In this document: piece after piece, positions 14,601-62,639 of the stretch | How the letters are laid out: each line of letters begins with the position of its first letter | How positions within the stretch are numbered: position 1 is the stretch's first letter | Assembly: GCA_948144175.1 (NCBI GenBank) | Contig: CANXME010000233.1 | Span: 124,001 to 188,000, forward strand | Length of the DNA stretch: 64,000 nucleotides | Source of the DNA: Closterium sp. NIES-65 | Taxonomy: Eukaryota; Streptophyta; Zygnematophyceae; Desmidiales; Closteriaceae | Reading direction: 5' to 3' | The notes under the pieces: generated by a model | What the model was told of the DNA's origin: nothing | What the model saw: the letters and a program-made list of their open reading frames with translations, nothing else | Database searches by the model: none | Translations under genes and position numbers: made by a program

Positions 14601-14636
14601 GTCCCCCCCTCCAAGCTGGGTGACGTGAGATACACC

Positions 14637-18252: not shown

Positions 18253-18297
18253 AAGGAATATCCCAGGGTCGGTTTTACCTTGTGCACCATCACCTTG

Positions 18298-18806
18298 TGG
18301 ACCGGTTGGACCAACTGTCCAGTTGGTTGGTCCACTAGACCGGTCAGGACCAACTGGCCTGGTGGTCCACTAGACCGGTTGAACCAACTGGCCTGTTGGT
18401 CCAATGGACCGGTTGGACTAACTAGCCTATTGGTCCATAGGTCCGGTTGACCAACAGGCCTTTTCATCCAATGGACCAGTTGGACCAGCTGGCATATGGT
18501 TCCATGGGACCGATTGGCCAATTGGCATGTTGGTCCAATGGACAGGTTGGAGCAACTGGGCTGTTGGTCCAATGGGCCGGTTGGACCAACTGAATTGTTG
18601 GTCCAATGATCCAGTTGGACCAACTGGCATGTTGCTCCATTGGAGCGGTTGGACCAACAAGCCTGTTGGTTCACTTGACCGGTTGACCAACTGGCCTTTG
18701 GTCCACTAGACAGGTTGGACCAACTGGCCTGTTGGTGCAGTGGACCGGTTGGACCAACTCGCCTGTTGGTCTAGTGGACCGGTTGGACCAACAGGTCTGT
18801 CTATAA
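18298..18806 (+). repeat. 34-bp hairpin satellite, block 2 (about 15 units)
   Basis: Same unit and same orientation as block 1. It lies between Copia-F and Gypsy-E. Confidence 0.93.
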
Positions 18807-18911
18807 TCCGAATCTGACTCTTCCTTCAAGGGCTCCCTCCCTTGATCCGTCTCTTCCCTTGTCTTTCCTGCCGTGGCTCTTGGTTTAGTCCTGTCTCTTT
18901 GTCTTACTCAC
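18807..18911 (-). repeat. Extra copy of the Gypsy-E 3' internal end, outside the 3' LTR
   Basis: About 100 bp (CCGAATCTGACTCTTCC... to ...GTCTTACTCAC) repeats the internal sequence at 19248-19350 in direct orientation, but lies on the far side of the LTR. The homology stops exactly at the LTR edge. The same arrangement occurs in the second methyltransferase element at 57703-57914. Confidence 0.85.
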
Positions 18912-19244
18912 TGGGCGGATCATTGAGCCGATCTCTGCACTGGAGGAAGCTCGGCTGGCTGCTGCTTGAACTGGCTTCTTTAGCTAGGGTTTGAAGATAC
19001 TTTTAGCTAACAAACAAACAAGTAGAGGCCAAAAGGCCCTCTGCGCATCTAAGTATGCTGCCACTTTGTACCATTGGTTAGCTACCGTTGGTCCATTCGG
19101 CTCTTCCCGCTGCAGGGAGCCCGCCACATTTTGGTTCTCGCCTACCTTATCCTCTCGCTACAGGATAGCTCTACACTACTCTGTCACACAATTATGCCAA
19201 GGTTCCATATCCTACTCTTGCTATTACTGCCTTTATTAATTGCA
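18912..19244 (-). repeat. Gypsy-E 3' LTR (about 333 bp)
   Basis: TGGGCGGATCATTGAG... to ...TTAATTGCA on the plus strand. Its text recurs, with changes, at 25580-25708 and 31884-32083. Edges are inferred from where the two copies stop matching. Confidence 0.8.
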
Positions 19245-19350
19245 TGCTGTCGGAATCTGACTCTTCCTTCAAGGGCTCCCTCTTTTGATCCGTCTCTTCC
19301 CTTGTCTTTCCTGCCGTGGTTCCTGGTTTAGTCTTGTCTCTCTGTCTTAC

Positions 19351-21211
19351 TCACTTGCCCCTTCCTCGGCTCTTGGCTCCTGGATTAGCCGTTGAATGCC
19401 GTCGTCCGTAGACAGAGGCGCTCCCCTTGCCGGCTTCCATCTGACCTGGTCTTGCTCGGCTGGGCCTGGCTGGCGCTACGTTGGTTACGTGGTCCCTTCT
19501 CTCCTCCCCCTTGGCACTCACTAGTACGATCACCCCTAAGTCCTTCACCTCCCTCACCTGCCACCTTTCTGTTGTCAGTCCGATATCCAATAAGTCCCCC
19601 TTCGCCTTCCTCAGATAGACTTCCCCTCCTGGCAGGATAGCCTGGGCCCGTTCTCCCCCGCTCTTCCTTCCCTTCTGCTTATATCTTTGTACATCTCTCA
19701 GCTGAGCCACGTGTAGATTCTCCAAGGCTGCTGGCAGCAGCTCCCGCAAGTATTTAGCTCATGCCTCCGCCACCACGACCCACGCCTCTTCTGACCCCAC
19801 CATTACAGAGTCTGTCGGCTGTTTTGGAGCATCGATGGGCAAAACGGGCTCTCTCCCTAGTAGGAGGTAATACGGTGACATGTCCCTCTGAGCTGCTTGC
19901 TTGCTAAAGCGGTAACCGGCAGTCACCCAAGGGAGCCTTAAGTCCCAATCTCGCTTATGCTGCTCTCCATACGCCCGCAGCCCCTTCTTCAGAGTTTGCA
20001 CGAACCTCTCGATAAGGCCGTCGCTCTGAGGGTGGTACCGAGAGGTCCTCCGGTCTCTTTCAGTAGCTGGTCGATGCGGCCTTGGAATTTAGCGCCTTGG
20101 TGGGTCAGCACTTCCCCGCACGCCCCTAACCGTGTCAAGACTTGCTCTTCAAAGGCTTTTGCAATCCGGGCTGAGTTCTTATTTGGCAACGCTTTTACCT
20201 CCACCCACTTGCTGCCGTGCTCGATCAGATAAGTATATAGCGCTTGCCCCTGCGGCTCAACGGCATCTCCCTGGCCAGATCCAGTAACCAACGGAACCTC
20301 AGTCCGTATATAGGCAGTGACTGTAGCTCCTGCCTCCCGCGGTCTAGTTCCGCCCGGTTTCGGCTAAACAACTCGCAGCCGTGCACCCACTACTTCACTT
20401 GCTTCCGCATTCTGGCCCACCACCATGTGGTCTCTACCAGTTGCTGAGTCCTTAGTCCCCTGAAGTGCCCTAGCTGACGATGCACTTGCGCAATGATCTC
20501 TTCCCTCTGCCCTGGCTCAGGCACTACCTTCCAACCTTCTTTCGTGTTCACCTGCAGTTGGTCTTGGTACCACCTGTAGTGGGCCCCTCGTGCCCTCACT
20601 CGCTTAGGCACTGCCCCTTCTTCCCCAGTCTTGCCTTGAACCCACTGTAATACTTCCTGGTCCTCCCATACGTCCTCCGGTCCCCTCCGGTCGCTCTTGT
20701 TGGCTCCTGCCCGATCAATGTCCAAGGCCATGGCGACAAAGCACTCCGACGGCCGCTCCAGCGCTGGGTGTCACAACAGGCCGTCCACGTGCTGCATGCT
20801 TTTACCCGGCCTATGTTTGATCACGAAGTCGTATTCCTGTAGCCTCATAGCCCACCTGGCGTTCCGGCCCGTAAGCGCCTGGTTCGTCTTTAGCCAGGTC
20901 AATGGCTGATGGTCAGTAACGAGCGTAAAGGGCCTTCCCTGCAGGTACACTCGGAAATGTGTAATCGCCCATACGGCTGCCAGTCCCTCCCCCTCATACG
21001 AGCTGTAATTGGCCTCTACCGGATTGCAGCTGCGGCTAGCAAAAACCACCACTTTCTCTTTCCCTTCCTTCGCTTGGCAGAGTACGGCGCCCATCCCTGC
21101 ACTGCTTGTTCGAACGGGTCGTTCTTGTTCGGTAACACCAGTACCGTCGCCATTTTGACTGCTTGGGTCAGCTGGTTCAAGGCCCGCTGCTCCTCCTCTC
21201 CCCACTGCCAC
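19351..21211 (-). pseudogene. Gypsy-E RNase H and integrase
   Basis: Minus strand from 21211: RNase H with Ala-Ser-Arg-Ser, Glu-Gly-Glu-Gly-Leu-Ala and Thr-Asp-His-Gln-Pro-Leu. Next is the integrase His-His-Cys-Cys region (His-Arg-Gln-Leu-Gly-His-Phe-Arg-Gly), then integrase core and C-terminal sequence with Tyr-Leu-Arg-Lys-Ala-Lys-Gly-Asp. No chromodomain is visible, unlike Gypsy-A. Broken. Confidence 0.82.
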
Positions 21212-24197
21212 GGCTGCTCTTCTCTCAAGAGGCGATTCAAGACTGTCGCAGTTCGGCTGAAGTTCAGGACGAACCTCCTATAGTACTCGAGGAATCCGAG
21301 GACTGCTCGCAAGGAGGAACGGTCCTTGGGCGTAGGAACGCGATCCAGGACTTCCACCTTCGCCTCTTGCACGCTCAACTTCCCGTCTCCCACTTCGAAC
21401 CCCAAGTACTGCACGGTTCGCTGGCCAAACTTGCACTTCTTCGGGTGGCAAGTCAGCCCGGCTTGTCTTATCGCGTCCAGCGTACTCCGCACATCTCGCA
21501 CATGATCCTCCTCGTTCGCACTGAACATGATCACATCATCTATGTAGCAGGCGGCTGCTGGTACCCCCCTCAACACCGTGTCCATCGTCCTCTTGAATAC
21601 CGCCGGCGCGTTCCTAGTACCGAATGGCATCACTGTCCACTCGTATAGGCCATCTGGACCGTGGAACGCGGTCTTCTTGTGGTCTTCTTCTCGGATCAGG
21701 ATCTGGTTGAAGCCTTGCCAAAGGTCCAAGGTCGAGAACACGGTAGCACCGTGCAGCTTATCAAAGATCTCCTCCGCTGACTGCATCGGATACCTATCCG
21801 GTACGGTCACCTTATTTAACCCCCGGTAATCTTCGCATATCCTCTTGGCCGACGCTTCCCCGGTAATGTCTGACCGGGACGCCACCACGGTGGCTGCTGC
21901 AAACTCACTCTCCGAACTCCGTATCAGCCTAGCCTCCAGCAGCTCCGCGCACTTGGCGGTGCATACTTCTACATCTCCCGGGCTCATCCGCCGCTTGCAA
22001 TGGTACAGTGGGGCATCGCAATTGAGCGTGATCCGCATCTCCTGCGCTTTACATCTCCCTAGTTCTTGGAGCGTGAATGCGAAGATCTGCCGATGTTCTG
22101 CCAGCACGCCTCGCAACGCAGCCGCGGCGTCTGCCCCTAGCCCTCCATCTATCTCCCATTCCATCCCGGTCGGCGTGTCCTTCTCGGCTTCGGGGGGCAA
22201 TGCCCCTCCTGCTTCTTCGCTGCCCTCCTGGCCTGCCTCGACCGCCATGAAGGTCCACCCTTCCCGTATTCGTGCGGTCCGCTGAGACTCTATGCTCTCC
22301 AACTGTTGTCTCCTCCACGCCGCCTCGCGTTCATCCTGGTAGCGCAAGCTCCCGTCTAGCTCCTGCTGTACCGCCTTGGTCTTCAGATGCATCCTGATAG
22401 TCTCCAGGATCCACGTCATGACGTTCAAATCCATTGCGCGTCCCAATGCCGCCCTCCTTTGCGCCTCCGTTACCTCCGGATGGGCCGTTGCCCCCCACTT
22501 ATGCCCCATTGATAGCTCCCTATCTTCTGCCGTAGGGGCTTCCCATCTCCACGTCCGCGAGTCGTAGACCATCCCTGGGCCGGGCAGGCTCCCTTCCATG
22601 ACGAACCCCCTGGCATCCGCAAAGGAGACTAGTGTCGGCCAGGCCCTCCTGGGCTCCCCCGGTACGTTGCACTGATACTGCGAGGGGTGGTCCTTGATAT
22701 TCACCGGCGCGGGGACCCTATTCGAGCCTAGGATATCTGTCACCAGTCTGGGGTGCGACCGCTGCATCTGGGCCAAGGAGTATCGCAGGACCGTGTCTGA
22801 TACGCCGTTCTGCCAGTACCTCCGTGGCCGGTGCGCCCTCAAGCCCAGCTGCGCCGCGTCAGCTGGCACCCCCCTCCCCAGCACCGACTGGATCTCCTCG
22901 AAGGCCCGCTTCACCGGCTCCCTCCGGTCATCGGCCATATCCACGTTCTCCTGAATGAGAATAAACTCCCTGCCCGTCTGCTGTATCATCCGCAGCACTC
23001 CTTCTAGGTCCCAGAACGAAGCTCCCCGGGGATCGTCCATTCCTCTCCCTTCCCCTGCCCGCAAGTATCCTTGGCGCTCCCAGCCCGCGACTACGAGATC
23101 TATGGGTCCCCACTCCTCCAGCTGCGGTCGGGTGATGTCACGTACGTCGTGCACTCCCCCTTCGCCCTCTAGGTTGATCGCCGAGATCGACATCTGTTGC
23201 GGGTATTCCCCGAGGAGTTTAAGCGCGTGATGGTACGCCATCTTCCTCACGACCGGGTCCTTCTCCATATGGAACCATTTCCCCGCGCAGCACCCTGCTT
23301 TCAGTGCCGCCGCTAGCCCCATTCCAATACCCCCGAACAGCTCCAGAATGCAGATGGCGCCTTCAAGATACCAGTTCTTGCTAACTCGATCCTTTAGGTC
23401 CGGCGTCCCCTGCCCAGTCTCGCTCATTTCGATTCTCCGTGTCCCTTCCTCTGCGAACTCCTGCCAGGTCCAATCGTCCAATTCCTTGGATAGGTCTGCT
23501 TCTTCAGCTCGGTACGCCGTGCGCGGTTCCTGCTTCACGAACCGAACAGGCAATGTTCCCACCACGCTCTCTGGGTCCCAGTACTGCAGCGGGTATAGCA
23601 TTTTCTCTTGCCAGGTGCAGATGGTTGCCCCCACCTTATACAGCAGCTCCATCCCCACCAGGACATCGTAGTCCTCTAACTGGGATATCCCGCATTTCAG
23701 TCGGATGCAACACTCCTTGTCCGTGCCCGGCAGCAGCGTTACTTCCACGGTCCGTTTGGTACTAGGTATCCACTTCGGGTCCCCGCCTTCCGCCGTCATG
23801 AGTAGGATCCCACTCTCCACTTGCATCTAAAAAAAAAAACCAGCCGGAGCTGCTTAGCCAATCCCTTGCCTAGGATGACATGGTACGCTCCTGTGTCGAT
23901 TATCCCTTGTCGGACGGGCAGCCCTCCCACCGTCAGGCTCCCTTTCTTCGCTATTAGCACAGATGCTTGGCAGACCATGCGTTCGTTAGGGTGCCTCCTC
24001 ATGTCACTACTAGTCGCTCCTTCCCTCCGAGCCAGCACCCGCTCCCGCCGGCTAGTGGTGCTCGAATCCCCCACCATGTTGGTGCGTGACCGCAGATCCA
24101 GTTCGATGCGCTCCCTCAGGTGCGCCATGAATCCATACTCGCGTACCAGCTCGGCTTCCGTCAGCTCGTCTTCCGCCACCTCCTCACTGGCTAACAT
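21016..24197 (-). pseudogene. Gypsy-E protease, methyltransferase and reverse transcriptase region
   Basis: Minus strand from 24197: an acidic leader, then the protease with Ile-Ile-Asp-Thr-Gly-Ala-Tyr. A protease-distal block follows (Leu-Leu-Met-Thr-Ala-Glu-Gly-Gly, Asp-Val-Leu-Val-Gly-Met-Glu-Leu-Leu). Then comes the methyltransferase domain. Then RT with Arg-Ile-Cys-Glu-Asp-Tyr-Arg-Gly-Leu-Asn-Lys, Ser-Thr-Leu-Asp-Leu-Trp-Gln-Gly-Phe, Val-Met-Pro-Phe-Gly and Tyr-Ile-Asp-Asp-Val. Most of it is one frame of 936 codons (21016-23826). A methyltransferase between protease and RT is not part of ordinary gypsy pol. Confidence 0.88.
22400..23356 (-). other. DNMT3-like C5-cytosine methyltransferase domain inside Gypsy-E pol
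   Basis: About 315 residues between protease and RT (roughly residues 158-475 of the 936-codon frame). Blocks in order: Leu-Glu-Leu-Phe-Gly-Gly-Ile-Gly-Met-Gly-Leu (AdoMet-binding motif I); Met-Glu-Lys-Asp-Pro-Val (motif II); Asp-Val-Arg-Asp-Ile-Thr (motif III); Glu-Trp-Gly-Pro-Ile-Asp-Leu-Val-Val-Ala-Gly (start of motif IV, very like the DNMT3 block); Gln-Glu-Asn-Val-Asp-Met (motif VI); Gln-Leu-Gly-Leu-Arg-Ala-His-Arg-Pro-Arg-Arg-Tyr (motif VIII); Ala-Glu-Asp-Arg-Glu-Leu-Ser-Met-Gly (motif X-like). The family would transfer a methyl group from AdoMet to cytosine in DNA. The motif IV block departs from the usual form, so activity cannot be assumed. Confidence 0.85.
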
Positions 24198-24200
24198 CGT

Positions 24201-25247
24201 CTAGCTCCGCCCTCCATTTGCCGGCATCCGCCCTAACCGAGTCTCCAGCTTCCTTATCTCCTCCTGTAGGTCCTCCTGCAACTGACCTTCTACCCCCGGC
24301 TTCCGTTTGTAGCAGTCGGCTAGCCGGTGCCCCCTCTTCCCGCAACGCTCGCACACCAGGAGGCTCGGGCAGTGTCTCTTCAAGTGCCCCGCCTCTCCGC
24401 AGGAGTGGCACCTCCTGGGGTTGCCGCGGTCGAGGGCGCTTTTCTCGGTTTCGGGGACAGCTGCAGCCGCCCAGCTCGACCGGTCCTTCTGCTTGGGAGG
24501 CCCGTCATCTAGCTGTAGCAGCCGTTGCGCGTGTTCCGTCCTCTTTGCCACCCAGTACACTTCCTTCAGCGTCACGTCGGCTCCGATTCCGTACACCACT
24601 GTCCTAACTACTGGCCGCAACTCCCCGTCCAATCCGCGCACAAATTTCTGCATCAGTAGCCGCTCGTCCCGTTTCTCCAGGTCCTTCGCCAGTTCCATCA
24701 GGCGGTTGTAGTAGGAGAGCAGCGATTCCTCTTTCTTCTGACGGAAGTCCCGGAATTCCTCCAGCCGCGCCTTCATTTGGCTGACAAACTTCTGCCGCAG
24801 TAGCTGCACGAATCTCTCTGTTGGATCCTTGATTAACCCGTGGGCCAACTCCTCCAGCACTTTGCTCCGCAACATCCGGTAGAAGGTTTCGACTTCGCCC
24901 GCGAGCGTGACGACCATCTTGCGGAAAAACTCCTGCGGGTCGAATCCCTCGCGCTCCCAGCAGTACTGGGCTGTCTCCAGCTGCATGAGATAGTTCTTCA
25001 ACGGCGGACCCACGTCGGGGATCCCCGTGTACCGATCCGCCACTTCAATCTTAGGCAAGGCGGCCACCCCCCAGTGCGCGCGTGGAAGAGGCCCCTCCTT
25101 CTCGTCCTTTAACAGCTCCAGCGCCGGTTGACTCGCCATCAACTTCCTGTGCGCGCTCGGGCCGGGGCCGTATTCTCTGCCTTTGTCACTCCACTGTCGC
25201 GCTAGGTTCGGCTCTTCCCCTTGCATACCGGGCATAAACGCCGGCAA
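24201..25247 (-). CDS. Gypsy-E gag-like capsid and zinc-knuckle protein, 348 codons
   Basis: One open frame. Residues about 75-200 are a retrotransposon gag (UBA/UBN2-like) with Tyr-Cys-Trp-Glu-Arg-Glu-Gly, a Phe-Val-Gln-Leu-Leu-Arg-Gln block and Leu-Leu-Ser-Tyr-Tyr-Asn-Arg-Leu-Met. Residues about 275-310 carry two knuckles: Cys-His-Ser-Cys-Gly-Glu-Ala-Gly-His-Leu-Lys-Arg-His-Cys and Cys-Glu-Arg-Cys-Gly-Lys-Arg-Gly-His-Arg-Leu-Ala-Asp-Cys. It lies directly upstream of the protease. The ATG at 25247 is the first in frame; the true start could be further upstream. Confidence 0.85.
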   Translation of the reverse strand: MPAFMPGMQGEEPNLARQWSDKGREYGPGPSAHRKLMASQPALELLKDEKEGPLPRAHWGVAALPKIEVADRYTGIPDVGPPLKNYLMQLETAQYCWEREGFDPQEFFRKMVVTLAGEVETFYRMLRSKVLEELAHGLIKDPTERFVQLLRQKFVSQMKARLEEFRDFRQKKEESLLSYYNRLMELAKDLEKRDERLLMQKFVRGLDGELRPVVRTVVYGIGADVTLKEVYWVAKRTEHAQRLLQLDDGPPKQKDRSSWAAAAVPETEKSALDRGNPRRCHSCGEAGHLKRHCPSLLVCERCGKRGHRLADCYKRKPGVEGQLQEDLQEEIRKLETRLGRMPANGGRS

Positions 25248-25703
25248 TTCTCGGCCGTCCCGGGCATTCCATCGGTCTTGGGCCGCTCTGATCCACCTAG
25301 CGTCGGGCGGTACTGTTCCTGGGTCTGATGCCGGAGCCCTCCTGGCCCCTTCCCTTCGCCTCGCCTCACTTTGCTCCCGCTAGTAAGGCGTCTTATAGGT
25401 GGGCGAGTCACTATGCCGCGAGGCAGGTGTGCTTCTTTCGTCGGACCGAATACTATTTGCGTGCGCGCGCCCTCCAAGCGTAGCCTGGGTAGTTTCCATC
25501 GTTCGTCGCTGGTAGCTAAAACCCGATCTCAACTGAACGTCGTCATTCATCGCTTGCTTGTTTGTAGGAAGTGTATCACTGGGCCGATCAGTGCACAGGA
25601 GGAAGCTCGGCTGGCTGCTGCTTGAACTGGCTTCTCTAGTAAGGGTTTGAAGATACTTTTTGCTAATTGAGAAAACAAAGGAGCAAGCAGAGGCCGAAAG
25701 GCC

Positions 25704-25708
25704 CTCTG
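25704..25708. repeat. Target-site duplication CTCTG of Gypsy-A1 (partner 31879-31883)
   Basis: CTCTG directly precedes TGTGAGGATC at 25709 and directly follows CTCTCACA ending at 31878. The unoccupied LTR at 18912-19244 has a single GGCCCTCTGCGC at the same spot, confirming one target site. Confidence 0.95.
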
Positions 25709-26091
25709 TGTGAGGATCTAGGATCGAGCTCAGAAAAGATTATTCAAATTGAATTGAATTGAATTGAATGTCCACCTGGGTACAACACGAGGCTATATAT
25801 AGGCTCGACACAAGGCCCCGTAACCAGGTGTTACGCGAAGGTTCCGCGGGTCGCGAAGCGTCCCGAACAGATCCTTACCGAATTCGGTAGAAGGCAATTC
25901 GGTGGCAACCAAAAAGCCAGAATTCGGTGCACGCTACCTAGCTCGGTGCTATAACTATAATAAAATATAGGAAAGCACCTAGCCTAGGAAATCAAGCAAT
26001 TCATGCATGCATATGAGTATCCTATGCTAGAAATAGCATGATAAAATAGAGGCAAGCAAGCATAGCTGGCATAAGCCGTCGTACTCTCACA
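25709..26091 (-). repeat. Gypsy-A1 3' LTR (383 bp)
   Basis: TGTGAGGATCTAGG...CGTACTCTCACA on the plus strand. It includes a GAATT microsatellite near 25749 and a TATATATA box at 25794-25801. Confidence 0.95.
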
Positions 26092-26099
26092 CGTCCCCC

Positions 26100-29000
26100 C
26101 CTCAAAGCTGGGTGGCGTGAGATACACCCTGCTTGACAAGATAGTCCTTGAGAGTACGGCGTGCGTTGCCCATATCAGCTTCTGCAACCCAACTGTCCTC
26201 AGTGGGATCGTATCCCTTCCAGCGTATCAGGAACTCGAGAGTCTTGCCACCACGGCGCCGATGAGAGAGAACGCGCTCGATCTCGTACTCGGGTTCATCC
26301 TGTATGAGAACAGAAAGGTGGTGGCGGTAGCTGCCGTCCCTGGAACTGTCGGTTGGGGTCCTTGTAGGGTTTCAGTAGCTGGATATGGAAAGCGTTGTGA
26401 AGCTTCCACGTATCTGGTAAGCGCAAGCGGAATGTTACTGGTGTCACCTGTGCCTCAACGAGAAAAGGACCACAGAAGCGAGGCCAGAGTTTGGATGGAA
26501 GGTGAGACAGGTTCAAGTTGCGCGTGTCAAGAAGCACCTGATCTCCGACTGCTACTGAGTGATCACGTTGCTGACGATCGGCATACTGCTTCTGGGAGTT
26601 CTGCATCGTGGTGAGACGTCGCCTGAGTCTTCTCCCATAGCTGCTGCATGGTGGTGACGAAGTCATGTGCGGCTTGGACGTGTGCCGGTGTAGTTGGCTG
26701 CTGTGGTGTGAGTGGTTCCCGTCCGTAACACAGGAAGAAAGGAGTTTTCCCTGTGGCCGCATGTGATGCGTTGTTGTAAGCGAACTCTAGGGTTGGTAAC
26801 TGTGTGTCCCAGTGACTGACGTCGTCCTTGCAAGCTGTGCGCAGTAACTGTTCAACCACTTGATTGAGTCACTCTGTCTGTCCGTCAGTCTGGGGGTGGT
26901 ATGCTGAAGACATTGCAAGCTTTGTCCCCAACAGTCCCATGAGCTCCTTCCAGAACTTACTCGTGAATTTGGGGTCTCTGTCTGAGATGAGTGTAGCGGG
27001 GATGCCGTGGATGGTGATGATGCGGTCGAAGAAGAGTCGAGCAGTTGCTTCAGCTGTAGCTGCGGCGTTGGTCGGTATGCAGTGACCCATTTTGGAGAAC
27101 TTATCGATCACCACGAGGATGGAATCATGTCCCCGTGAGGTCGAAGGAAGTCCTGTGATGAAGTCGAGGCTAACGAATTGCCATGGCTGCTCCGGTACGG
27201 GTAGAGGCTGAAGTAACCCTGCTTTTTTCTGCTTGCTGCTCTTAATCCGCTGGCACGTGTCGCAAGAGGTGACGAACTGCTGCACGTCTGCTGCCATCCC
27301 GGGCCACTAGTAATACTTCGCTATCCCTGCTAACGTCTTGTTGCTCCCGAAATGTCCCGCGTAAGGTACGTCGTGAAACTCCTCCAATAGGATCTGCCGT
27401 AGCGGGGCGTAATTCGGTACCCAAATCTTTCCTGAACCCTTCCTTACAGCTAAGTCTTTCTCCCACTGTAATAGCTTCTTGGTCTGTGCTGTAGCAATCT
27501 CTGCGTCCACGGAGTACCCATGTTGGAATAGACCCTTAAGCAGAGGGTTCATCCCGTCGAGCTGGATGCGTGCTACATGTCCGGGGCGGCTCAACGCGCC
27601 TGCCTTGTTGTGTAGCCCGGGCTTGTAGACGATGTCGTAGAGGAAGTGAGTTTCCAGGAAGTCCACCCACCGCACCTGTCGTCGTGAGAGTGTCGGCTGT
27701 GACTTCAGGTATTTGAGACTGCAGTGGTCAGTATAGACTGTGGTCTTGGCTCCCTCTAGGTAACACCTCCACGCCTTGAAGGCTATGACTATCGCTAAGG
27801 CTTCCTTGTCGTGAATGGGGTAGTTTAGTTCTGCTCCGTGTAGCTTCTTACTGAGGTAGGCGATGGGCTGCAAACCGCGTCCGTGATCCTGCATCAGTAC
27901 TGCTCCGACTGCTTGGTCACTAGCGTCTGCTTCTACCACGTTGTCCTTGTCTGGATCCGGCAAGATGAGCACTGGCGCTGTAGTCACTGCTGTCTGTAGC
28001 TGCTCCATGGCTTGCTGATGAAGGGTATCCCATTTGTAGGGCGTATCCTTTTTCAGTAGGTCGGTTAGTGGCGCTGCTATCTTAGCGTACTGCGGCACGA
28101 ACCTGTTGTAGTAGTTGGCGAAGCCTAGGAACTGCGGTAACTCCTTCACGTTCTCTGGTACTTTCCACTTCTTGACGGCTTCGATCTTCCGTGGGTCCAC
28201 GTGTACGCCCTCGGCACTCACCATGTGCCCGAGAAACTGCACCTTCTTCAGGGCGAAGTCGCTCTTTGACAGCTTCACGTAGAACTTGTTTTTCCGCAGG
28301 ATCTCGAACACCTTCCGCAGATGCTCCACGTGCTCCTTCATGTTCTTGGAGTAGATGAGAATGTCGTCCAGGTACACCACCACGCATTCGTCCAGCAGGG
28401 GTCGTAAGATGTGATTCATCTCCGCCTGAAACGTTGCTGGTGCGTTGCAGAGTCTGAACGGCATCACCAAGTATTCGTAGCAGCCGTATCTGGTACGGAA
28501 CGCTGTCTTGTGGACGGAGTTGTCTGCCATCTTGATCTGCCAGTAGCCCGATCGTAGGTCCAGTTTCGAAAATACTGTTGCTCCACGCAGTTGATCGAGT
28601 AGGCTGTCTATGCGCGGTATGGGATATTTGTTTTTGACTGTCTGATTGTTCAGTGCGCGGTAGTCGATGCACATCCGTAGACTGCCGTCTGGTTTTGGAG
28701 TGAAGAGAACTGGTGCGCCGTAGGGAGAGGTGGATGGGCGGATCAGTTGTCTGTCCAGTAGATACTCTATCTGTTTTTTCATGTCTATCAGTTCAGTCGG
28801 ACTCAGTCGGTATGGTGCACGTGAGACGGGTTTCGCACCTGGTTCCTCCACGATCTCGTGCTCGTGGGTGCGTACTGGAGGTACGCCTGCAAGTAGGTCG
28901 TCGGGCATTATATCCTTGTACTGCTCCAAGACCTCCTTCACTGCTGCAGGTAGCTCGGAACTCGGCTTCTCCTCCTCTGCTGCTGCCATAACCAGTGCTA

Positions 29001-30213
29001 GGTAACCCGTGTTACTCTCGTTCACCGTCTGTTCGAACCGTGCCAGTGTCGTTTCAGGTACGTCCCCTGTATCCGTCCAGCTTCGAAGTGCTATCCGCTT
29101 CCCATTGTTGTAGATGCACACCTTGATGTTGACCCAATCGATCTCGGGGTTGAATCGCTTCAGGAAATCTCGCCCCAAGATAAAATCTAATCCTTTGATG
29201 TTGGTGACTGGTAGCTTCGGCTTCCACCTCAACGCACCTATATGCAGTTGCAGTGATGCTTCGCCGTGGATAGGAAGCTTCGTACCATCCACCATGGTTG
29301 CTGAAAACTGGGTCTCTTCCGCCTTCTCTCCAATTTTCTCCAATGCTCCGCGGTCACACACTGAGTGAGATTCACCGCTGTCCACCAGTGCCTGGAGGCG
29401 TCGCCCATTGCATAACACCTCGAGGAGTAGTGGTTTCTGCTGTGCTGAGTAGCCAAAGAGGGTCTCGTTAACAGGATCATAGGGTACATCAAACTTAATA
29501 CCTTCCCTTTTTCCTATACCTGACTCAGCGCTTTCCAACTTCACCTGGGGGGTAGGAGGATTTTTCCGAGGCTTGTATAATTTTTCCTGAGCCTGGATGT
29601 CTCCTCTAAGCCTTGGCAGCTGTGTAGGCTTCACCTGTGGGCGACGGGGAGCCTTAACACTGTGCTGCGGGGAGAGAATATTAACTCCACGGAACGCACG
29701 ACCCTTCTCTACGCTCCGTAGTATTTTGCCCAACTTCTCAGGTACCTGAATAATTTCTAAAGGCTTTTTCTTGGCCTCTAGACCTCCCCTGAATTTTTTG
29801 AAGGCTTGTAAACCACGAGAAGCAATATTCTTCGTTAGAGCATCTTTATAGGATACTTTTAACGAATTCTTACTTTCGTGGGTGTTCGGCTGGAGTTTCC
29901 CGGTCGGTGCAGAGTCTTTTTTCGCGGAGCCTCCATTCGCCTCGGCGATTTCCCCTGATGCCGGCCGGTCGTGACGTTTTAAATTCGCGCCATCATTTTC
30001 TCCTTTTTTCACCCGCTCCGAAGTCGCCACGTCGTCGCCTTTTCCTGCTTTTCGGATCTTTACGCGATCGCCAGGTCGATCCGCGGCTACTAGCGATTCC
30101 CGTTTTTTTACTTCAGGGGTGCTCCACTGTTTCCGTCCCAGAGTGCCGCACGTGCTTTCTTCATTTTGTAGCACGACAAAAACTGATGTCCTGCTGCGCC
30201 GCAAAATTCGCAT
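26100..30213 (-). pseudogene. Gypsy-A1 pol region: protease, RT, RNase H, integrase, chromodomain
   Basis: A long frame of 968 codons (27307-30213) holds a Lys/Arg-rich leader and a protease with Leu-Val-Asp-Ser-Gly near residue 279. RT follows with Met-Cys-Ile-Asp-Tyr-Arg-Ala-Leu-Asn and Tyr-Leu-Asp-Asp-Ile, then RNase H with Glu-Ala-Asp-Ala-Ser-Asp and Tyr-Thr-Asp-His. It ends in the integrase zinc region (Ala-Gly-His-Phe-Gly). Downstream are the integrase core (Cys-Asp-Thr-Cys-Gln, Leu-Asp-Phe-Ile-Thr-Gly, Ser-Asp-Arg-Asp, His-Pro-Gln-Thr-Asp-Gly-Gln-Thr-Glu) and, at about 26125-26290, a chromodomain with Phe-Leu-Ile-Arg-Trp-Lys-Gly-Tyr. Confidence 0.92.
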
Positions 30214-31064
30214 TTTGTCGGCTGCTGCTTCGCGTCGTATTTGTCGATATCCATCGGTTCGGTGAACGTGGGGGGTGCCGATCGCTCCGTGTCGAATGTA
30301 CGGTTCGGCGTGAAGCGTCGTGTTTCGGGTTGACTACGAGTCAGCGCGTCGTATCGCTCGGCAGCACGCACGATGTCTCTGTAGCTGTTGTAATTCGCCG
30401 CAATCACCTGCCGCCGAATCTCCATTTTTAATCCTTCGGTGTACGCCTGGATTTTTTCGCCTTCGGTCAGGTCGGTGATGCGGTTGAACAGTATCTCCAT
30501 CTGCTGCTTGTACTGTGTTACACTACTGTATTGCTTGTGTCGGTGTATCTGCTGCCGCGCCATGTAGGTTGTATTAATTGATTCAAAACGCTCGATTAAA
30601 TCTGCCCGAAACTGCTGCCACGTTTTCTCCCCGCGGGCTACGTCGGCGTAGTAAATCCATTCGAGAGCCGGTCCACGTAACAGTGTTGCTGTGAGCCGAA
30701 TCCTTGCTGCGTCGTGTTGCGGGGTCGAACAGCCAATGGCCTCGAAGTAAATTTCGAGGGTGGCCACGAATCACCGGACGTCGGATCCCTTCGCGCTTGG
30801 ATCGAACGCCTCCAGGAGCCTCGGTCGTGCTGCTTCGAGGTTCGGCGACAGTGGTGCCATTGGTCCGTGAAATGTCGGTGTCGCCACTGCTGCTGGAGTT
30901 GTCGGTGCTGCAGTCGCTGTGGTCGCTGCTGCTGCGGTGGCGAACCCTGGTTGGCTTGTCAGAAAAGCCTCGAGTCGACGAAGCGTCGCCTGCGTCTGCT
31001 CCATGTCGGTGCGGAGGCTCGCTATGTCGCTCGTAGTCGCGTAGTTGTCGCCTTGGCCCTCCAT
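30108..31064 (-). pseudogene. Gypsy-A1 gag region
   Basis: Minus strand from 31064: a short N-terminal part with a coiled-coil-like Leu-Arg-Thr-Asp-Met-Glu-Gln segment and an Ala/Thr/Pro-rich stretch. Then the capsid domain: Ala-Thr-Leu-Leu-Arg-Gly-Pro-Ala-Leu-Glu-Trp, Trp-Gln-Gln-Phe-Arg-Ala-Asp-Leu. Then a knuckle [14 protein letters not shown] (Cys-X2-Cys-X4-His-X4-Cys). The 3' end overlaps the start of pol by about 100 bp in another frame, the usual arrangement for frameshift expression of pol in Ty3/gypsy elements. Confidence 0.85.
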
Positions 31065-31469
31065 TTGGTGATTTACAGGAAGATGCGCGACGAAAATAAT
31101 CGAATTCTAGGTGCTGGTCGACTTACTGCGAGTCAAATTGACTGTGGAATCGACGAGCGCGAATTCTGTAGGTTGCGTAAATCTCCCTTAGGCGAAATTC
31201 GCGTCCGATCTCGGCCGTTGAGGAGAAAATCGATCAGACGCTCCAAATTCCAACTTTTTTGGGCGAAATTCTCTGGGCCGTTGAGATGAAACTCGATCAA
31301 ACGGTCGAAACTCCAACCTTTCCACCAGTAAATCTGAGGGGTGTTCGAAAACCGAATCGAGGGGGACTTAGAAAAATTGCGCGGAACTGGTTTTACATAC
31401 CCGTATCGGCGCTTTCATCGTCGCCCCCGCGGTTTTTAAAGGCCGGAACTAAGCGGTTGAAGACCTCGC
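31065..31469 (-). other. Gypsy-A1 untranslated leader
   Basis: About 400 bp between the primer-binding-like site and gag with repeated AATTC/GAAATTC and CGATCAAACGG-type motifs. No convincing reading frame. Probably leader and packaging sequence. Confidence 0.6.
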
Positions 31470-31494
31470 GTGTAAACCCGCTCTGATTACCAAG
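31470..31494 (-). other. Gypsy-A1 primer-binding-like site
   Basis: The minus strand just inside the 5' LTR reads CTTGGTAATCAGAGCGGG, close to the TGGTATCAGAGC type complementary to initiator-Met tRNA but with differences. The exact primer is uncertain. Confidence 0.6.
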
Positions 31495-31878
31495 TGTGAG
31501 GATCTAGGATCGAGCTCAGAAAAGATGATTCAAATTGAATTGAATTGAATTGAATGTCCACCTGGGTACAACACGAGGCTATATATAGGCTCGACACAAG
31601 GCCCCGTAACCAGGTGTTACGCGAAGGTTCCGCGGGTCGCGAAGCGTCCCGAACAGATCCTTACCGAATTCGGTAGAAGGCAATTCGGTGGCAATCGAAA
31701 AGCCAGAATTCGGTGCACGCTACCTAGCTCGGTGCTATAACTATAATAAAATATAGGAAAGCACCTAGCCTAGGAAATCAAGCAATTCATGCATGCACTA
31801 TGATTATCCTATGCTAGAAATAGCATGATAAAGTAGAGGCAAGGAAGCATAGCTGGCATAAGCCGTCGTACTCTCACA
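31495..31878 (-). repeat. Gypsy-A1 5' LTR (384 bp)
   Basis: Same ends as the 3' LTR, about 98 percent identical by eye. As the 5' LTR it would hold the promoter. Confidence 0.95.
31580..31587 (-). promoter_or_regulatory. Likely TATA box of the Gypsy-A1 promoter
   Basis: TATATATA in the context GAGCCTATATATAGCCTCG on the minus strand, upstream of the GAATT repeat and the LTR 3' end. It is conserved in all Gypsy-A LTR copies here (14322, 25794, 35060, 44311), which supports function in the family. Confidence 0.7.
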
Positions 31879-32084
31879 CTCTGCGCACCTAAGTATGCTG
31901 CCACTTTGTACTGTTGGTTAGCTACCGTTGGTCCATTCGGCTCTTCCTGCTGCAGGGAGCCCACCACATTCTGGTTCCCGCCTACCTTATCCTCTCGCTA
32001 CAGGATAACTCTACACTACTCTGTCACACACTTAAATTAAGGTTCCATATCCTACTCTAACTATTACTGCCTTAAAAAAATGCG

Positions 32085-34050
32085 TGACACTATCCAGTAG
32101 ACCGGTTGGACAAACTCGCCTGTTGGTCCAGTGGACCGGATGGACCAACTGGCTTGTTGGTCCAGTGGATCAGTTGGACCAAATGGTCTGTCGGTCCAGT
32201 AGTCCGGTTGGACCAACTGGCCTTTTGGTCCAATTGACAGGTTGGACCAACGGGCCTGTTAGTCAAGTGGATCGGTTGGACCAACTGGCCTGTTGGTCCA
32301 GTGGACCGGTTGGACAAACTCGCCTCTTGGTCCAGTGGACCGGTTGGACCAACTGGCCTATTGGTCCAGTGCACCAGTTGGACCAAATGGTCTTTTGCTC
32401 CAGTACTCCGGTTGGACCAACTGGCCTTTCGGTCCGATAGACCATTTGGACCAACTGGCCTTTTGGTCCAATGGACCGGTTGGACCAACTGGTCTGCTGG
32501 ACCAGTGGACCGGTTGGATCAACTAGACTTTTTGTCCAATGGACTAGTTGGACCAACTAGCCTGTTGGTCCAGTCGACCAGTTAGACCACGTCCCCTGTC
32601 GGTCCCGTCGACCGGTTGGACCAACGGGCCTGTCGGTTCAGTGGACCGGTTGGACCAACTAGCCAATTGGTCCAGTGGACTGGTTGGACAAACTCGCCTG
32701 TTGGTCCAGTGGACCGGTTGGACCAACTGGCCTGTTGGTCTAGTGGACCAGTTGGACCAAATGGTCGGTCGATCTAGTAGTCCGGTTGAACCAACTGGCC
32801 TTTTGGTCCAATGGACTGGTTGGACCAACTGGCATGTTGGTCTAGTGGACCGGTTGGACCAACTAGCCTTTTTGTCCAATGGACCAGTTGGACCAACTAG
32901 CCTGTTGGTCGAGTCGACCGGTTGGACCAATTGGCTTGTCGGTCCAGTGGACCGGTTGGACCAACTGGCTTGTCTTTCCTATGGACCGGTTAGACCAACT
33001 GGCCTGTTGGTCCAATGGACCGGTTGGAGCAACTGGCATGTTGGTCCAATGGGCCAGTTGGACCAACTGGACTGTTGGTCCAATGAGTCGGTTGGACCAA
33101 CTGGCTTGTTGCACCATTGGAGCGGTTGGACCAACAAGTCTATTGATCCAATAGACTGGTTGACCAACTTGCCTTTTGGTCAAGTGGACCGGTTGGACCA
33201 ATTGGCTTGTTGGTCTAGTGGACCGGTTGGACCAACTTGTTTCTTTTTTTTTATGGAAAGATACACTAATGGTGCACAATACAACGGCAGTTGTAACTGC
33301 AGTTGGACCAACTGGTCTGTCGGTCTAGTAGAGCGATTGAACCAAATGGCCTATCGGTCCAATGGACCAATTGGACCAGCTGGCCTTTTGGTCCAAAGGA
33401 CTGGATGGACCAACTAGCCTGTTGTTCCAGTGGAGCGGTTGGCCCAACTGGCCTTTCGGTCAAGTGACCGGTTGGACCAACTAGCCTGTTGGTCCTGTGG
33501 ACCGGTTGGACCAACTCGACTGTCGGTCTAATAAACCGGTCCAACTGGTCAATCGGTCCAACTGGCTTGTCGGTCTAGTGGACCGGTTGGAGTATGTCGG
33601 TCCAGTAGACCGGTTTGACCAACTGGTTTGTCGGTCCTGTAGACTGGTTAGGCCAACTGGCTTGTTGGTCCAATGGACCGGTCGGACCAACTGGCCTGTT
33701 GGTTCACTAGATCGTTTAGGACCAACTAACCTGTTGGTCCAAAAGAACGGTTGGACCAATTGGCCGATTAGTCCATAGGACCAAACGGTTGGACCAATTG
33801 GCCTATTAGTCCATAGGACCGATTGACCAACTAGCGTGTTGGTCTAATGGACCGGTTGGACCAACTGGCCTATTGGTTTACTGGACCTGTTGAATCGACT
33901 GGCTTGTTGGTCGACTAGACCGGTTGGGACCAACTGGCCTGTTGGTCCTTTTGACTGGTTGGACCAACTGGCCTATTGGTCCATTAGACAAGTTGGACCA
34001 ACTGGCCTGTTGGTCCAGTGGACCGGTTGGACCAACTAGACTGTTGTTCC
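32085..34050 (+). repeat. 34-bp hairpin satellite, block 3 (about 57 units)
   Basis: Same unit and orientation. Many units here have CCAGTGGACCGG where other blocks have CCAATGGACCGG, a block-specific variant. A short foreign insert lies at 33237-33301. Confidence 0.94.
33237..33301 (-). other. Short non-satellite insert with an A-rich tail (read on the minus strand)
   Basis: About 65 bp interrupt the array. On the minus strand it reads CTGCAGTTACAACTGCCG..., then CATTAGTGTATCTTTCCAT followed by nine A and GAAACAA. The A tract at one end suggests a small retroposed piece. I do not recognise the source and see no clear target duplication. Confidence 0.5.
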
Positions 34051-57702: not shown

Positions 57703-57914
57703 TGTCGGAACTCGCCAACCTCCTCCGTGCCTTCTTGTGTCTCTCTCTCTTTCTCCTCTTTCTCACTCATCTTATGGCCTCCTTACCGCTACTGCCCTTC
57801 CATTTACTGAGTCTTCCCCACTCCTCCTTCTCCTGTCAAGTCCCTCTTCAGTGACTTCTCACATGTATACCCTCCTTCCTCCTCTCGTCTCCCTTCCCTT
57901 GCTACTTCTCTCCG
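57703..57914 (-). repeat. Extra copy of the Gypsy-E2 3' internal end, outside the 3' LTR
   Basis: TGTCGGAACTCGCCAACCTCC... to ...ACTTCTCTCCG is a direct, roughly 90 percent copy of the internal segment 58614-58824. Homology ends exactly at the LTR start (57915). Parallel to 18807-18911 in Gypsy-E. Confidence 0.88.
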
Positions 57915-58611
57915 TGATGAGTTGAAAGCTCCCTCACATAACTATTTCTATCTAGCTTCTCCTACCACATAATGGCTTGCCTTATGTCCTTAACTTCACT
58001 ACTTGGTCAGTGTGCCACGAGAAATTCACGTTTAAAAGGAAGCATACGAGCAATGAGGTTAGCTGCAATAAGGGTCCACCTAATCTACCAGCTCTGCCTC
58101 CTCCACTCTAGTCCCATCATCTCCTCTTCTGATCATCAGCAGCTATTGCTACCTTCGAGCAGACTTGCATCCATCCTGGCGTGTAGCCACTCTTCCCCGC
58201 CTCTTGCTACTTTGCCTCTAGCTGCCACTTCACTGATCCAACTGGCTCCTTGGAGCACGCTTGTACACATAGGAAAGCAAACACGCATGCACACGAACAC
58301 ACATCCAAGCTCTGGTGGTAACCATTCTTTCCCTTGCCGCTGCCTAGCACTGCGCTGTGATTCCCTCCCTCACCCACTTTCCTCTTACATAAGTACCACC
58401 CAGTTTTGTTCCCATGCAACTACCCAACCCTTCGCTTCGGCAGTCGTCAACCACCTTCTCACCCCCTCGTTCTCCCCGCTTCCCCAGCAATCACCTGTCC
58501 CTTCGCCTCCCATCCTCGATACTTGCCCAGCTCGCTATGTACAATATGTTCACTTTGTGCATCCCCCATACGCTCCCCACTACTCCCTTCACGTTCATGC
58601 AAATGTGACAG
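57915..58611 (-). repeat. Gypsy-E2 3' LTR (about 697 bp)
   Basis: TGATGAGTTGAAAGC... to ...CAAATGTGACA on the plus strand. The first 540 bp match 63453-64000. Confidence 0.85.
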
Positions 58612-58965
58612 CTGTCAGAACTCACCAACCTCCTCCGTGCCTTCTTGTATCTGTTTCTCATTCTCCTCCTTCTCACTCATCTTTTGGCCTCTTTACTGCT
58701 ACTGCCCTCCCACTTACTGACTCTTCCCCACTTTTCCTTCTCCTGTCAAGTCCCTCCCTAATGACTTCTTACATGTATACCTTCCTTCCTCCTCTCGTCT
58801 CCCTGCCCTTGCTACTTCTCTCCGTGATGGGCTCCCTCTTGCCCCCTCCCATGACCGGTAGCTGATGACCTCGCCCTGGTCATGGGAACCTTGTAAATCT
58901 GGGCCTTCTTAGCCTTGCCAGCCACTGCCATGTTTGTCACATGATCCATAACCCGTTTCCCCTTC

Positions 58966-60878
58966 TCATCCTCCAACACCAACACCCCCGACTCTCGCAC
59001 TTCCTTGATAGTCCACCTCTACTACGACACTCCCAAGTCTAGTCCATCTCTCTTCGCCCTCCTCACGTACACCTCCTGGTGTGGCTCCTTGGCGTGCATC
59101 TTCTCTAGCTGCCGCTGACAGTAGCAGTGAACATCCCGCAGCTGCGCCACCTTCAGACTCTCCATTGCTACCGACAAAATCTTCTTCAGGTACACTGCTC
59201 TCGCGTCTGCTAGTGCCACCCACTTCTCCGCAGTCCTTGCCGTCACATTCTGTCAGCAACCGTGGTGCTCCCACTGGCAGTATCGGCTGTTTCCAGAATA
59301 GCAGATAGTAGGGTGACACATCCTTCAGAGCTGCTTGTCTGCTGAACCGGTACCCGACCATCACCCATGCCAACTTCTTATCCCAGTCCCCCTTGTGTGC
59401 CTCGCCATACACCCACAGCCCCTTCTTCACAGTCTGCACCAACCTCTCTGTCATGCCATCTGCTTGTGGGTGGTACCGAGAGGTGGTGCAATGCCGGATG
59501 CCGTTGGACGCCAGCAGCTCGTCAAAATCCCCCTGAAATTCGGTCCCATGATCTATCAACACCTCTGCACATGCCCCAAACCTTGTTAGCACCATCTCCT
59601 CGAAGGCCTCTGCCACTGCTGCCGCCGTCTTATTCACCAACAGTCGTGCTTCCACCCACTTGATCACGTGCTCAATCATGAGTACAATGTACTGCCTCCC
59701 TCTCCTTGTCACTGGCAGCTCCCCTGCTATGTCTAACGACCATTGGTATCCGAGCTCCACTATGGCCAGCGGCTGGAGCTCTACTTGACTCTTTAGTAGC
59801 GTTGATATGTTCCTGCAGCAGAGTTCGCTTTTCCACCCAGTCGTTCACCTCCTGCCCACACCACTGCCAATCCTTCTCCTTCATAGGAGTAGTTTGCCAC
59901 TGCTAGGTTGCATGTCCTGCTAGCGAACGTCACCACCTTCTCCTGCCCGCCTTCCATCTGACTTAGGACTGCCCTCATCCCTACACTGCTCCAGTCCGTA
60001 TACAGCACGAATGGTGCCTTCCTGTCGGGTAACTTCAGCACTGCCCCTTTACTGCCTCCATTAACCCCTTCAGCACTACCTCCTATGCCTCCTTCCACTG
60101 CCACTTCTGCTCCTCCCTCAGCAGCTTGTTCAAAGGTGCCGCCCTCTTGCTGAAATCTGCGATGAGCTTACGGTAGTACTTCAAGAACCTCAGCAGCGCC
60201 CTCACACCACTTCTGTCCTTCGGGCGTCCCACCTAGTCCAACACTTTCACCTTCGCCTTCTAGATGCTTAACTCTCCCCCTGCTACCTCAAACCCCAAGT
60301 ACGCCACGCTGTTGTGTCCAAAGCGGCACTTTCCCGAATGGCACGTCAACCTTGCCGCTTGGATGGTTGTCAAAGTCACTTCTATGTCCTTAACGTGTGT
60401 CTCAACTATCTGGGCTGAAGATGATGACATCATCTATGTAGCAAGACGCGTTCTTCATTTCACTTAGCACCGTATCCATCACTCTCTGGAGCAATGCTGA
60501 CGCATTTCTCAGTCCGAATGGCATGAAGTTCCATTCGTACAAGCCATCCGGCCCGTTGAAGGCAGTCTTCCTTTTGTCCACTTCTGCGGGAATTTGGTTG
60601 AAGCCCTGCCTCAGGTCTAACGTCGAGAACACCCAGCTCCCCTGCATCTGGTCGAATATCTCCTCCGCCATGGGCATCAAGTAGCGGCCGATTGCATTGA
60701 CTTTGTTTAAACCCCTGTAATTCTCGCACATCCTCCGTGACAACACTGCCCCCGTCAGGTCTGTCCTCGCCACTACCACTGTCGCGGCTGCATATTCTGA
60801 TGCTGACTTGCGAATAAATCCCGCTGCTAACAGTTCTTGACACTTTTCTGTACAGACTTCCACGTCTTGGCACTTCAC
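58966..60878 (-). pseudogene. Gypsy-E2 RT, RNase H and integrase
   Basis: Minus strand: RT with Cys-Glu-Asn-Tyr-Arg-Gly-Leu-Asn-Lys, Ser-Thr-Leu-Asp-Leu-Arg-Gln-Gly-Phe and Tyr-Ile-Asp-Asp-Val (60402-60878). Then RNase H (about 59793-60104; Phe-Ala-Ser-Arg-Thr-Cys-Asn). Then integrase (58966-59760) with Ser-Leu-Asp-Ile-Ala-Gly-Glu, Ile-Asp-His-Gly-Thr-Glu-Phe and Tyr-His-Pro-Gln-Ala-Asp-Gly-Met-Thr-Glu. The integrase core is in one open frame of 264 codons. Confidence 0.87.
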
Positions 60879-62500: not shown

Positions 62501-62639
62501 CTTCTGAAACACCCTTCCGTCCAAGTGCAGCTCTCTCAGTAGCCCACTTTCGCCCCAATGCTGACGGTGCGAATCTCGGTGCCTCCTCTCCTCTTCGAGC
62601 ATTTCCCAACTGAGTATCCCCAGCTCCTCATCCACTGTC

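What the first reader, a model, noticed from the sequence alone, without database searches (positions are those of the whole stretch)
22400..23356. Cytosine methyltransferase carried inside a Ty3/gypsy polyprotein (Gypsy-E)
An insert of about 315 residues between protease and RT shows the ordered blocks of a C5-cytosine methyltransferase: Phe-Gly-Gly-Ile-Gly, Asp-Val-Arg-Asp-Ile-Thr, Glu-Trp-Gly-Pro-Ile-Asp-Leu-Val-Val-Ala-Gly, Glu-Asn-Val, Arg-Arg-Tyr. The Glu-Trp-Gly-Pro block and the block order point to the DNMT3/DRM side of the family. Published work, as I recall it, describes retrotransposons of dinoflagellates and a charophyte alga that acquired cytosine methyltransferases. The class is therefore known, but this position inside pol and this lineage may be new. 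Inference: such an element could mark its own or neighbouring copies, altering silencing. The motif IV block departs from the usual form, so the domain might bind DNA or AdoMet without methylating.
Basis: partly seen in the sequence, partly recalled or inferred. Interest (0 to 1): 0.9.

Follow-up and report, generated by a model that had tools for sequence, protein, structure and literature searches.

The report
DNA methyltransferase inside algal jumping gene
A jumping gene in what is probably a Closterium green alga carries its own DNMT3-type DNA-methylating domain; this copy is an old wreck with the key cysteine changed, but the family has many intact copies and belongs to a wider group of green-algal elements than the papers found describe.

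Summary
Confirmed: minus-strand 22390-23391 encodes a DNMT3-type C5-methyltransferase domain, in frame in a Ty3/gypsy pol between protease and RT. The kind is known: a Klebsormidium nitens protein that I take to be KnitGypsy-Dnmt3 (PMC5890265) aligns colinearly. Added here:
(1) 19 of 25 first relatives are named Closterium; the host genome gave 117 scored matches.
(2) Motif IV is Glu-Cys-Gln, not Pro-Cys-Gln, in 90 of 100 host copies read; 3 of 100 lost the Cys, including this one (Arg). dN/dS is about 0.075 among stop-free copies.
(3) Intact copies have A-coding-B-A-B split repeats, TG...CA ends and, in 6 of 7, 4-bp target duplications, so a DIRS-like layout looks integrated by a DDE integrase.
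(4) 32 of 96 RT-to-integrase relatives carry the domain, 30 of them directly before integrase, including a form without catalytic residues in Chlamydomonas.
Trees fit one capture and one relocation but do not prove it.
Methylation of the element's cDNA or insertion site is inferred. By known chemistry this copy cannot methylate.

The parts
18805..32089 (-). Whole element, copy 1 (TG at 32089; B2 end at 18805), with a younger gypsy nested in its A1 repeat
   Evidence: B2 end placed by aligning its last 13 bases with B1
22390..23391 (-). DNMT3-type C5-methyltransferase domain (ORF residues 146-479)
23074..23076 (-). Arg codon CGC at the place of the catalytic Cys of motif IV
   Evidence: 97 of 100 host copies keep Cys
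24201..25379 (-). gag-like ORF with zinc knuckle, ended by an in-frame stop
23796..24200 (-). Start of the protease; frame change at a T run near 23826
   Evidence: weak Asp_protease_2 match (E 0.0057, below cut-off)
21304..22107 (-). Reverse transcriptase (ORF residues 574-841)
   Evidence: PF00078 4e-31
20771..21225 (-). RNase H, broken over two frames
19759..20770 (-). Integrase (H2C2 zinc finger and rve core), broken over several frames
   Evidence: H2C2 1.7e-8; rve_3 0.0034, below cut-off
31879..32089 (-). A1 repeat, left piece
25575..25708 (-). A1 repeat, right piece (first bases are the nested element's duplication)
25709..31878 (-). Nested younger gypsy, LTRs 98.2% identical over 386 bp, 5-bp duplication CAGAG
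   Evidence: ends read by eye
19248..19355 (-). B1 repeat, 93% identical to B2; followed by GC and A2
18919..19245 (-). A2 repeat, about 84-90% identical to the pieces of A1
18805..18912 (-). B2 repeat
18801..18804 (.). Target duplication ATAG, right side
32090..32093 (.). Target duplication ATAG, left side
57703..64000 (-). Second, diverged element of the same kind, running on to 64133 outside the window: A1 from 63452 up, B1 58613-58829, A2 57914-58610, B2 57703-57919
61540..62509 (-). Methyltransferase domain of the second element, in two frames, with Glu-Cys-Gln (Cys codon TGC at 62216-62218)

Best explanation
This is an old, decayed copy of a Ty3/gypsy-type retrotransposon family whose gag-pol polyprotein includes a DNMT3-type cytosine methyltransferase between protease and reverse transcriptase. 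Shown: the domain's identity and place, stop-free and near-identical family members in the same genome, a family-wide Glu-Cys-Gln active-site motif, low dN/dS, split A-coding-B-A-B repeats, TG...CA ends and 4-bp target duplications. Inferred: the protease frees the domain inside the particle; it methylates cytosines of the element's own cDNA, or DNA at the insertion site, by the usual cysteine attack on C6; a DDE integrase inserts the copy. The likely gain is that new copies arrive in a state that the host reads as self, or that is protected, or that keeps their expression low. The window copy, with Arg for the catalytic Cys and broken frames, is a relic.
For: Fold and profile. Same order as the K. 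nitens protein, 30% over 951 columns, E 2e-111. Host copies: 117 scored matches; of 100 read, 97 keep the Cys and 90 are ECQ; of 47 without in-frame stops, 44 are ECQ and 39 read LENVD in motif VI. Median dN/dS 0.075 over 133 usable pairs of 400 sampled among stop-free copies. Intact ORFs of 2092-2178 aa in 7 of 12 copies fetched at about 10 kb, one scanned with all pol domains. Target duplications in 6 of 7. Related SymbioDIRS-Dnmt3 domains methylated CG in yeast (PMC5890265, section read).
Against: No methylation or expression data. The K. nitens domain did not methylate in yeast, which its authors call inconclusive since DNMT3B failed too. The motif IV Pro is Glu in this family and activity of that form is untested. 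Chlamydomonas-type elements keep the domain without motif IV and VI residues, so a role without catalysis exists or existed. dN/dS pairs overlap and stop-bearing copies are also low (median 0.193, 62 of 400 pairs), because it partly reflects selection on ancestors. Some of the 117 matches may be haplotype or assembly duplicates (L045 and L046 are identical).
Confidence: 0.7

Rival explanations
1. The domain is kept as a non-catalytic binding or scaffolding module (as DNMT3L is; recalled), and Glu in motif IV has already removed catalysis in the whole family.
For: Pro-to-Glu in 90 ECQ of 100 host copies and none with PCQ; Chlamydomonas-type elements keep a domain without the catalytic residues; the K. 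nitens domain was inactive in yeast.
Against: Cys is kept in 97 of 100 host copies; in stop-free copies motif VI is nearly always ENxD; on the tree the EC form is found in 31 of 52 rows, which is odd if the Cys has no use.
Confidence: 0.2
2. The enzyme acts on RNA (genomic RNA or primer tRNA) rather than on DNA.
For: A C5 enzyme of DNMT type, DNMT2, acts on tRNA (established); PMC5890265 raises RNA as a target for the LINE-borne type.
Against: Sequence and fold are nearest to DNMT3, not DNMT2.
Confidence: 0.1
3. Domains of different algal gypsy elements were captured several times from host DNMT3 genes, and the shared place in pol is convergent.
For: Two places in pol; the RT tree groups Klebsormidium with the RH|MT|IN set rather than with Closterium (98/87), unlike the domain tree; host DNMT3 genes were not in my trees; PMC5890265 infers an acquisition in the K. 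nitens lineage.
Against: Carriers fall in one RT-RH-IN clade (100/99); the domain tree splits cleanly by place (99/98; 99/99); Closterium with P0084 and Klebsormidium as one RT clade is not rejected (AU p 0.248).
Confidence: 0.3
4. Chance resemblance or a frame artefact.
For: Weak Pfam score of this copy alone.
Against: a profile of PR|MT|RT members hits 32 of 96 relatives and 0 of 96 reversed sequences.
Confidence: 0.01

Closest known systems
KnitGypsy-Dnmt3 of Klebsormidium nitens (PMC5890265); I take P0028, KFL_009030040, to be one from its domains and annotation
   Same: DNMT3-type domain between protease and RT of a gypsy pol with DDE integrase; colinear over 951 columns; repeats described as DIRS-like (Fig. 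4 legend), as found here.
   Different: Host; 30% identity; PCQ in K. nitens against ECQ here; target duplications are not mentioned for it in the main text.
SymbioDIRS-Dnmt3 of Symbiodinium (PMC5890265, section 6)
   Same: DNMT3 domain in pol; A-coding-B-A-B repeats.
   Different: Tyrosine recombinase there; DDE integrase here, with 4-bp duplications.
DNMT3A/DNMT3B catalytic domain
   Same: Fold, motif order, motif X region.
   Different: About 22% identity in the structural alignment; Glu for the motif IV Pro; part of a polyprotein.
PAT-type elements of the DIRS order (PMC3266345, passages)
   Same: Split direct repeats.
   Different: They use a tyrosine recombinase; the integrated DIRS model gives no target duplication.
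Chlorophyte gypsy elements with the domain before integrase (e.g. P0106, P0110)
   Same: Homologous domain and RT-RH-IN clade.
   Different: Place in pol; PHD finger at the C-terminus in many; catalytic residues lost in P0106, P0097 and P0102.

Membership tests
C5-cytosine methyltransferase (PF00145) | Motifs I, IV, VI, VIII, X in order and the fold | tested here: met
C5-cytosine methyltransferase (PF00145) | Catalytic Cys of motif IV in this copy | tested here: not met
   Arg, codon CGC at 23074-23076; the family keeps Cys in 97 of 100 copies
DNMT3 class | Best match to DNMT3 by sequence profile and by fold | tested here: met
DNMT3 class | Place inside the DNMT3 clade of a tree with host enzymes | not tested
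   no host DNMT3 sequences were in my trees
DRM | Permuted motif order | tested here: not met
   motifs run I to X
Ty3/gypsy | Order PR, RT, RNase H, H2C2 and rve integrase | tested here: met
   intact copy L062, (there no protease passed E 0.01; protease seen in P0011)
Ty3/gypsy | One plain LTR at each end | tested here: not met
   both window copies and L062, L063, L065, L066 are A-coding-B-A-B
KnitGypsy-Dnmt3-like elements | DNMT3-type domain between PR and RT in a homologous pol | tested here: met
KnitGypsy-Dnmt3-like elements | DIRS-like A-coding-B-A-B repeats (Fig. 4 legend) | tested here: met
DIRS/PAT | Tyrosine recombinase | tested here: not met
   Pfam scan of the 2123-aa ORF of L062 shows rve and H2C2 and no tyrosine recombinase family at E up to 0.01
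DIRS/PAT | Insertion without target duplication | tested here: not met
   4-bp duplications in 6 of 7 intact copies, ATAG in window copy 1

The most novel reading that the evidence does not exclude
A DNMT3-type domain was captured once, anciently, by a gypsy lineage of green plants. It now occurs in streptophyte algae (between PR and RT) and in chlorophytes (moved once to between RNase H and integrase, often with a C-terminal PHD finger). In most of these lineages it carries a retained Glu-Cys active-site variant; it rides on a split-repeat element that is integrated by a DDE integrase; and in Chlamydomonas relatives it was kept after losing catalysis.
Probability: 0.55. Interest if true: 0.75.

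Novelty: new variant of a known kind. Interest (0 to 1): 0.62.

Why it matters
Retrotransposons normally suffer from DNA methylation; one that carries the enzyme and keeps it under selection raises the question of what an element gains by methylating DNA. A genome with intact, near-identical copies makes that testable (5mC on particle cDNA, Cys mutants). The Glu-Cys motif tests whether Pro-Cys is needed in C5 enzymes. Finding the domain in chlorophyte elements, Chlamydomonas included, would widen the published picture of an acquisition in the K. nitens lineage. The split repeats together with target duplications pose a concrete reverse-transcription puzzle.

Tried and rejected
DRM assignment: rejected, the motif order is not permuted. 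Chance: rejected (0 of 96 reversed sequences). Viral contigs: 42 pattern matches, none confirmed. Bacterial origin: the genome-contig scan gave 20 loci; only L001 is close (42%), an element on a contig titled Synechococcales, which I take to be an algal contig binned wrongly (inference); the other 19 are at 21-39% over part or all of the domain and were not studied. A-intron-B splicing: rejected by eye, no GT-AG at the junctions. dN/dS between the two window copies: one piece saturated (dS 1.41), the other failed on stop codons; genome copies were used instead. Loss of the domain: 15 rows of the clade show none, but 12 of them (P0080-P0083, P0085, P0087, P0088, P0090-P0093, P0111) start at most 107 residues before RT, as ORF2 of L001 does, so an upstream ORF with the domain is not excluded and no count of losses is claimed; P0079 (K. 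nitens), P0100 and P0118 are better candidates. Solo A-B units in the genome: the search did not complete. PHD finger in the window's family: none in L062. Fold of the Chlamydomonas domain: not predicted.

Full report

THE ACTIVE SITE. Motif IV reads AGWERQGYLRAG; the Arg codon CGC is at 23074-23076. Relatives mostly have WECQ or WPCQ. I read 100 of the 117, the window copy included: ECQ 90, other triplets with Cys 7, Cys lost in 3 (window ERQ, L022 EFQ, one EYQ), PCQ 0. Of 47 without in-frame stops, 44 are ECQ, one ECH, one QCQ and one is the window's ERQ. So Pro-to-Glu belongs to the family, while Cys-to-Arg was seen in this copy alone. NG86 dN/dS is 0.075 (median; 5-95% 0.031-0.250) over 133 usable pairs of 400 sampled among stop-free copies, and 0.193 (0.076-0.411) over 62 of 400 among copies with stops. 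The pairs overlap and share ancestors, so this points to selection but is not a formal test. Against its six nearest copies the window domain is saturated at silent sites.

THE ELEMENT. Copy 1 runs from TG at 32089 to 18805 with the 4-bp duplication ATAG (the B2 end is altered and was placed by alignment with B1). Its A1 repeat is split by a younger gypsy (25709-31878, LTRs 98.2% over 386 bp, duplication CAGAG). The order is A1, gag, PR, MTase, RT, RH, IN, B1, A2, B2. A1-A2 identity is 84-90% over two pieces, B1-B2 93%. The copy is damaged: a stop after gag, a frame change at a T run in PR, and more in RH and IN. A second, diverged element at 57703-64133 has Glu-Cys-Gln and the same layout; its flanks CTGC and CTGT agree in 3 of 4 bases. 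Of 12 host copies fetched at about 10 kb, seven have ORFs of 2092-2178 aa. Of these seven, L062, L063, L065 and L066 show A1 (about 370 bp), coding, B1 (178-209 bp), A2, B2; L061 and L064 end at the B1 end, as recombination between B1 and B2 would leave them (my reading), and L067 has a deletion there. Exact 4-bp duplications flank 6 of the 7 (L062 ACTT, L063 TATA, L064 CACG, L065 GGGC, L066 AAGA, L067 AGGG); L061, whose B end is altered, was not scored by the script and shows none by eye. Of the other five, L069 shows diverged A and B pairs, L070 one pair that would fit B1 and B2, and L068, L071 and L072 none. Ends are TGTCAT...CCGACA and the inner B1-A2 junction is CCGACA-GC-TGTCAT, so the element can be read as a 574-bp TG...CA repeat (A-B) whose left copy is split by the coding region (my reading). 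In L062 the A pair is 100% identical, which speaks for recent movement. The intact ORF of L062 holds a zinc knuckle, DNA_methylase, RT, RNase H, H2C2 and rve, and no tyrosine recombinase.

RELATIVES. The first search gave 25 proteins, 19 named Closterium; the host is probably a Closterium, which no call proves. The profile search gave 53 proteins, including K. nitens KFL_009030040 (P0028), which aligns with the window ORF over 951 columns at 30% (E 2e-111) and has MTase, RT, RH, H2C2 and rve in that order. I take it to be KnitGypsy-Dnmt3 of PMC5890265 (sections 6, 9, 10 and 11 and passages read; figures and supplements not seen). Its Fig. 4 legend says that the repeats are arranged as in DIRS while the domains are gypsy. 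Its main text does not contain Closterium, Chlamydomonas or 'target site', and TSD appears once, for the LINE type.

WIDER THAN THE PAPERS FOUND. A search with the RT-to-IN part of P0028 gave 100 proteins, 96 of them new. 32 of the 96 carry the domain, by the A2 profile and by a profile of PR|MT|RT members alone (0 of 96 reversed sequences at E up to 10). In 30 of the 32 it lies directly before integrase, in 27 with RNase H seen before it; P0084 and P0123 have it before RT. Named hosts are Chlamydomonas reinhardtii (P0106), Monoraphidium neglectum (P0110), Tetrabaena socialis (P0113, partial) and Pseudoscourfieldia marina (P0119); many others are unnamed. Of 109 proteins with the domain among all 172 plus the window, 69 with at least 230 aa were compared and 40 shorter ones dropped. 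P0106, P0097, P0102, P0107 and P0119 lack the motif IV Cys. In the 52-row tree set motif IV is EC in 31, PC in 13 and other in 8; P and E need at least 4 changes. L001, a contig titled Synechococcales, has gag-PR-MTase in one ORF and RT-RH-IN-PHD in the next, with PCQ.

TREES. In the domain tree the 33 RH|MT|IN rows lie on one side of a branch (99/98), and Closterium (100/100) and Klebsormidium-type (100/99) are single groups. With L001 and part of copy 2 added and P0119 left out, the split by place holds (99/99). In the RT-RH-IN tree (72 rows) the carriers fall in one clade (100/99) that also holds 15 rows without a visible domain and 2 without upstream sequence. The RH|MT|IN carriers form one nested set (100/99) with P0100 and P0118, which show no domain; Klebsormidium groups with that set rather than with Closterium (98/87), unlike in the domain tree. 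Closterium with P0084 and Klebsormidium as one clade is not rejected (AU p 0.248). Simplest reading: one capture upstream of RT, then one move. Host DNMT3 genes were not in these trees, so repeated capture stays possible.

MECHANISM. Shown: identity, retention, low dN/dS, integration marks. Inferred: release by the protease, methylation of cDNA or target DNA, gain to the element. The 2018 paper reports CG methylation in yeast by SymbioDIRS domains and none by the KnitGypsy domain, which it calls inconclusive. For the window copy, the known chemistry (attack by the motif IV Cys; established knowledge) says no methylation.

LITERATURE. Nine searches of open PMC papers gave no paper whose listing reports this domain in Closterium or chlorophyte gypsy elements; most listed papers were not opened, and subscription papers are not covered. 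Passages only were seen of PMC12344493, PMC9915684, PMC10952607 and PMC3266345. PMC12344493 says that some DNMT3 members sit in LTR Copia and DIRS elements of streptophytes and dinoflagellates; the elements seen here are gypsy.

Noticed in passing
window 57703-64000 (-), to 64133 outside: A second, diverged methyltransferase-bearing element with Glu-Cys-Gln and the same split repeats.
   Followed up: yes
P0106 residues 1215-1534 (Chlamydomonas reinhardtii CHLRE_09g398141v5), also P0097 and P0102: The domain is still recognisable (E 1.6e-40 for P0106) between RNase H and integrase but has lost motif IV and VI residues: a retained pseudo-methyltransferase.
   Followed up: partly
window 14015-14291, 18294-18838, 32056-33237: A 34-bp minisatellite in three places; copy 1 of the element sits between two of them.
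   Followed up: partly
L062, L063, L065, L066, A2-B2 junction: The junction differs between otherwise near-identical copies, as if it were formed anew when copies are made; in L065 the B repeats begin about 30 bp later.
   Followed up: no
L061, 1000-1235 and 8100-8335 (minus-strand orientation): A 236-bp, 100% identical direct repeat flanks this copy, which lacks A2-B2 and shows no 4-bp duplication. Unexplained.
   Followed up: no
L001 (CADCWO010000201.1): Whole gag-PR-MTase / RT-RH-IN-PHD coding region on a contig titled Synechococcales cyanobacterium, probably an algal contig binned wrongly; P0112, titled Minisyncoccia, looks like the same case.
   Followed up: partly
P0110 residues 2260-2407: Next to the PHD finger lies a Tudor-type match (PF21743, E 3.8e-5, score 23.8, below its cut-off): a possible chromatin-reading tail in a methyltransferase-bearing element.
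   Followed up: no
window 2247-5702 (-), 39499-42063 (+), 47444-48697 (+), 14236-15441: Copia-type pol ORFs at the first three places (the third match is below cut-off) and, at the last, another copy of the nested gypsy's 3' part.
   Followed up: no
P0079 (K. nitens KFL_001690230): A close relative of P0028 in RT-to-IN (66%) with about 1100 residues upstream of RT and no methyltransferase match: possible loss or replacement of the domain.
   Followed up: no
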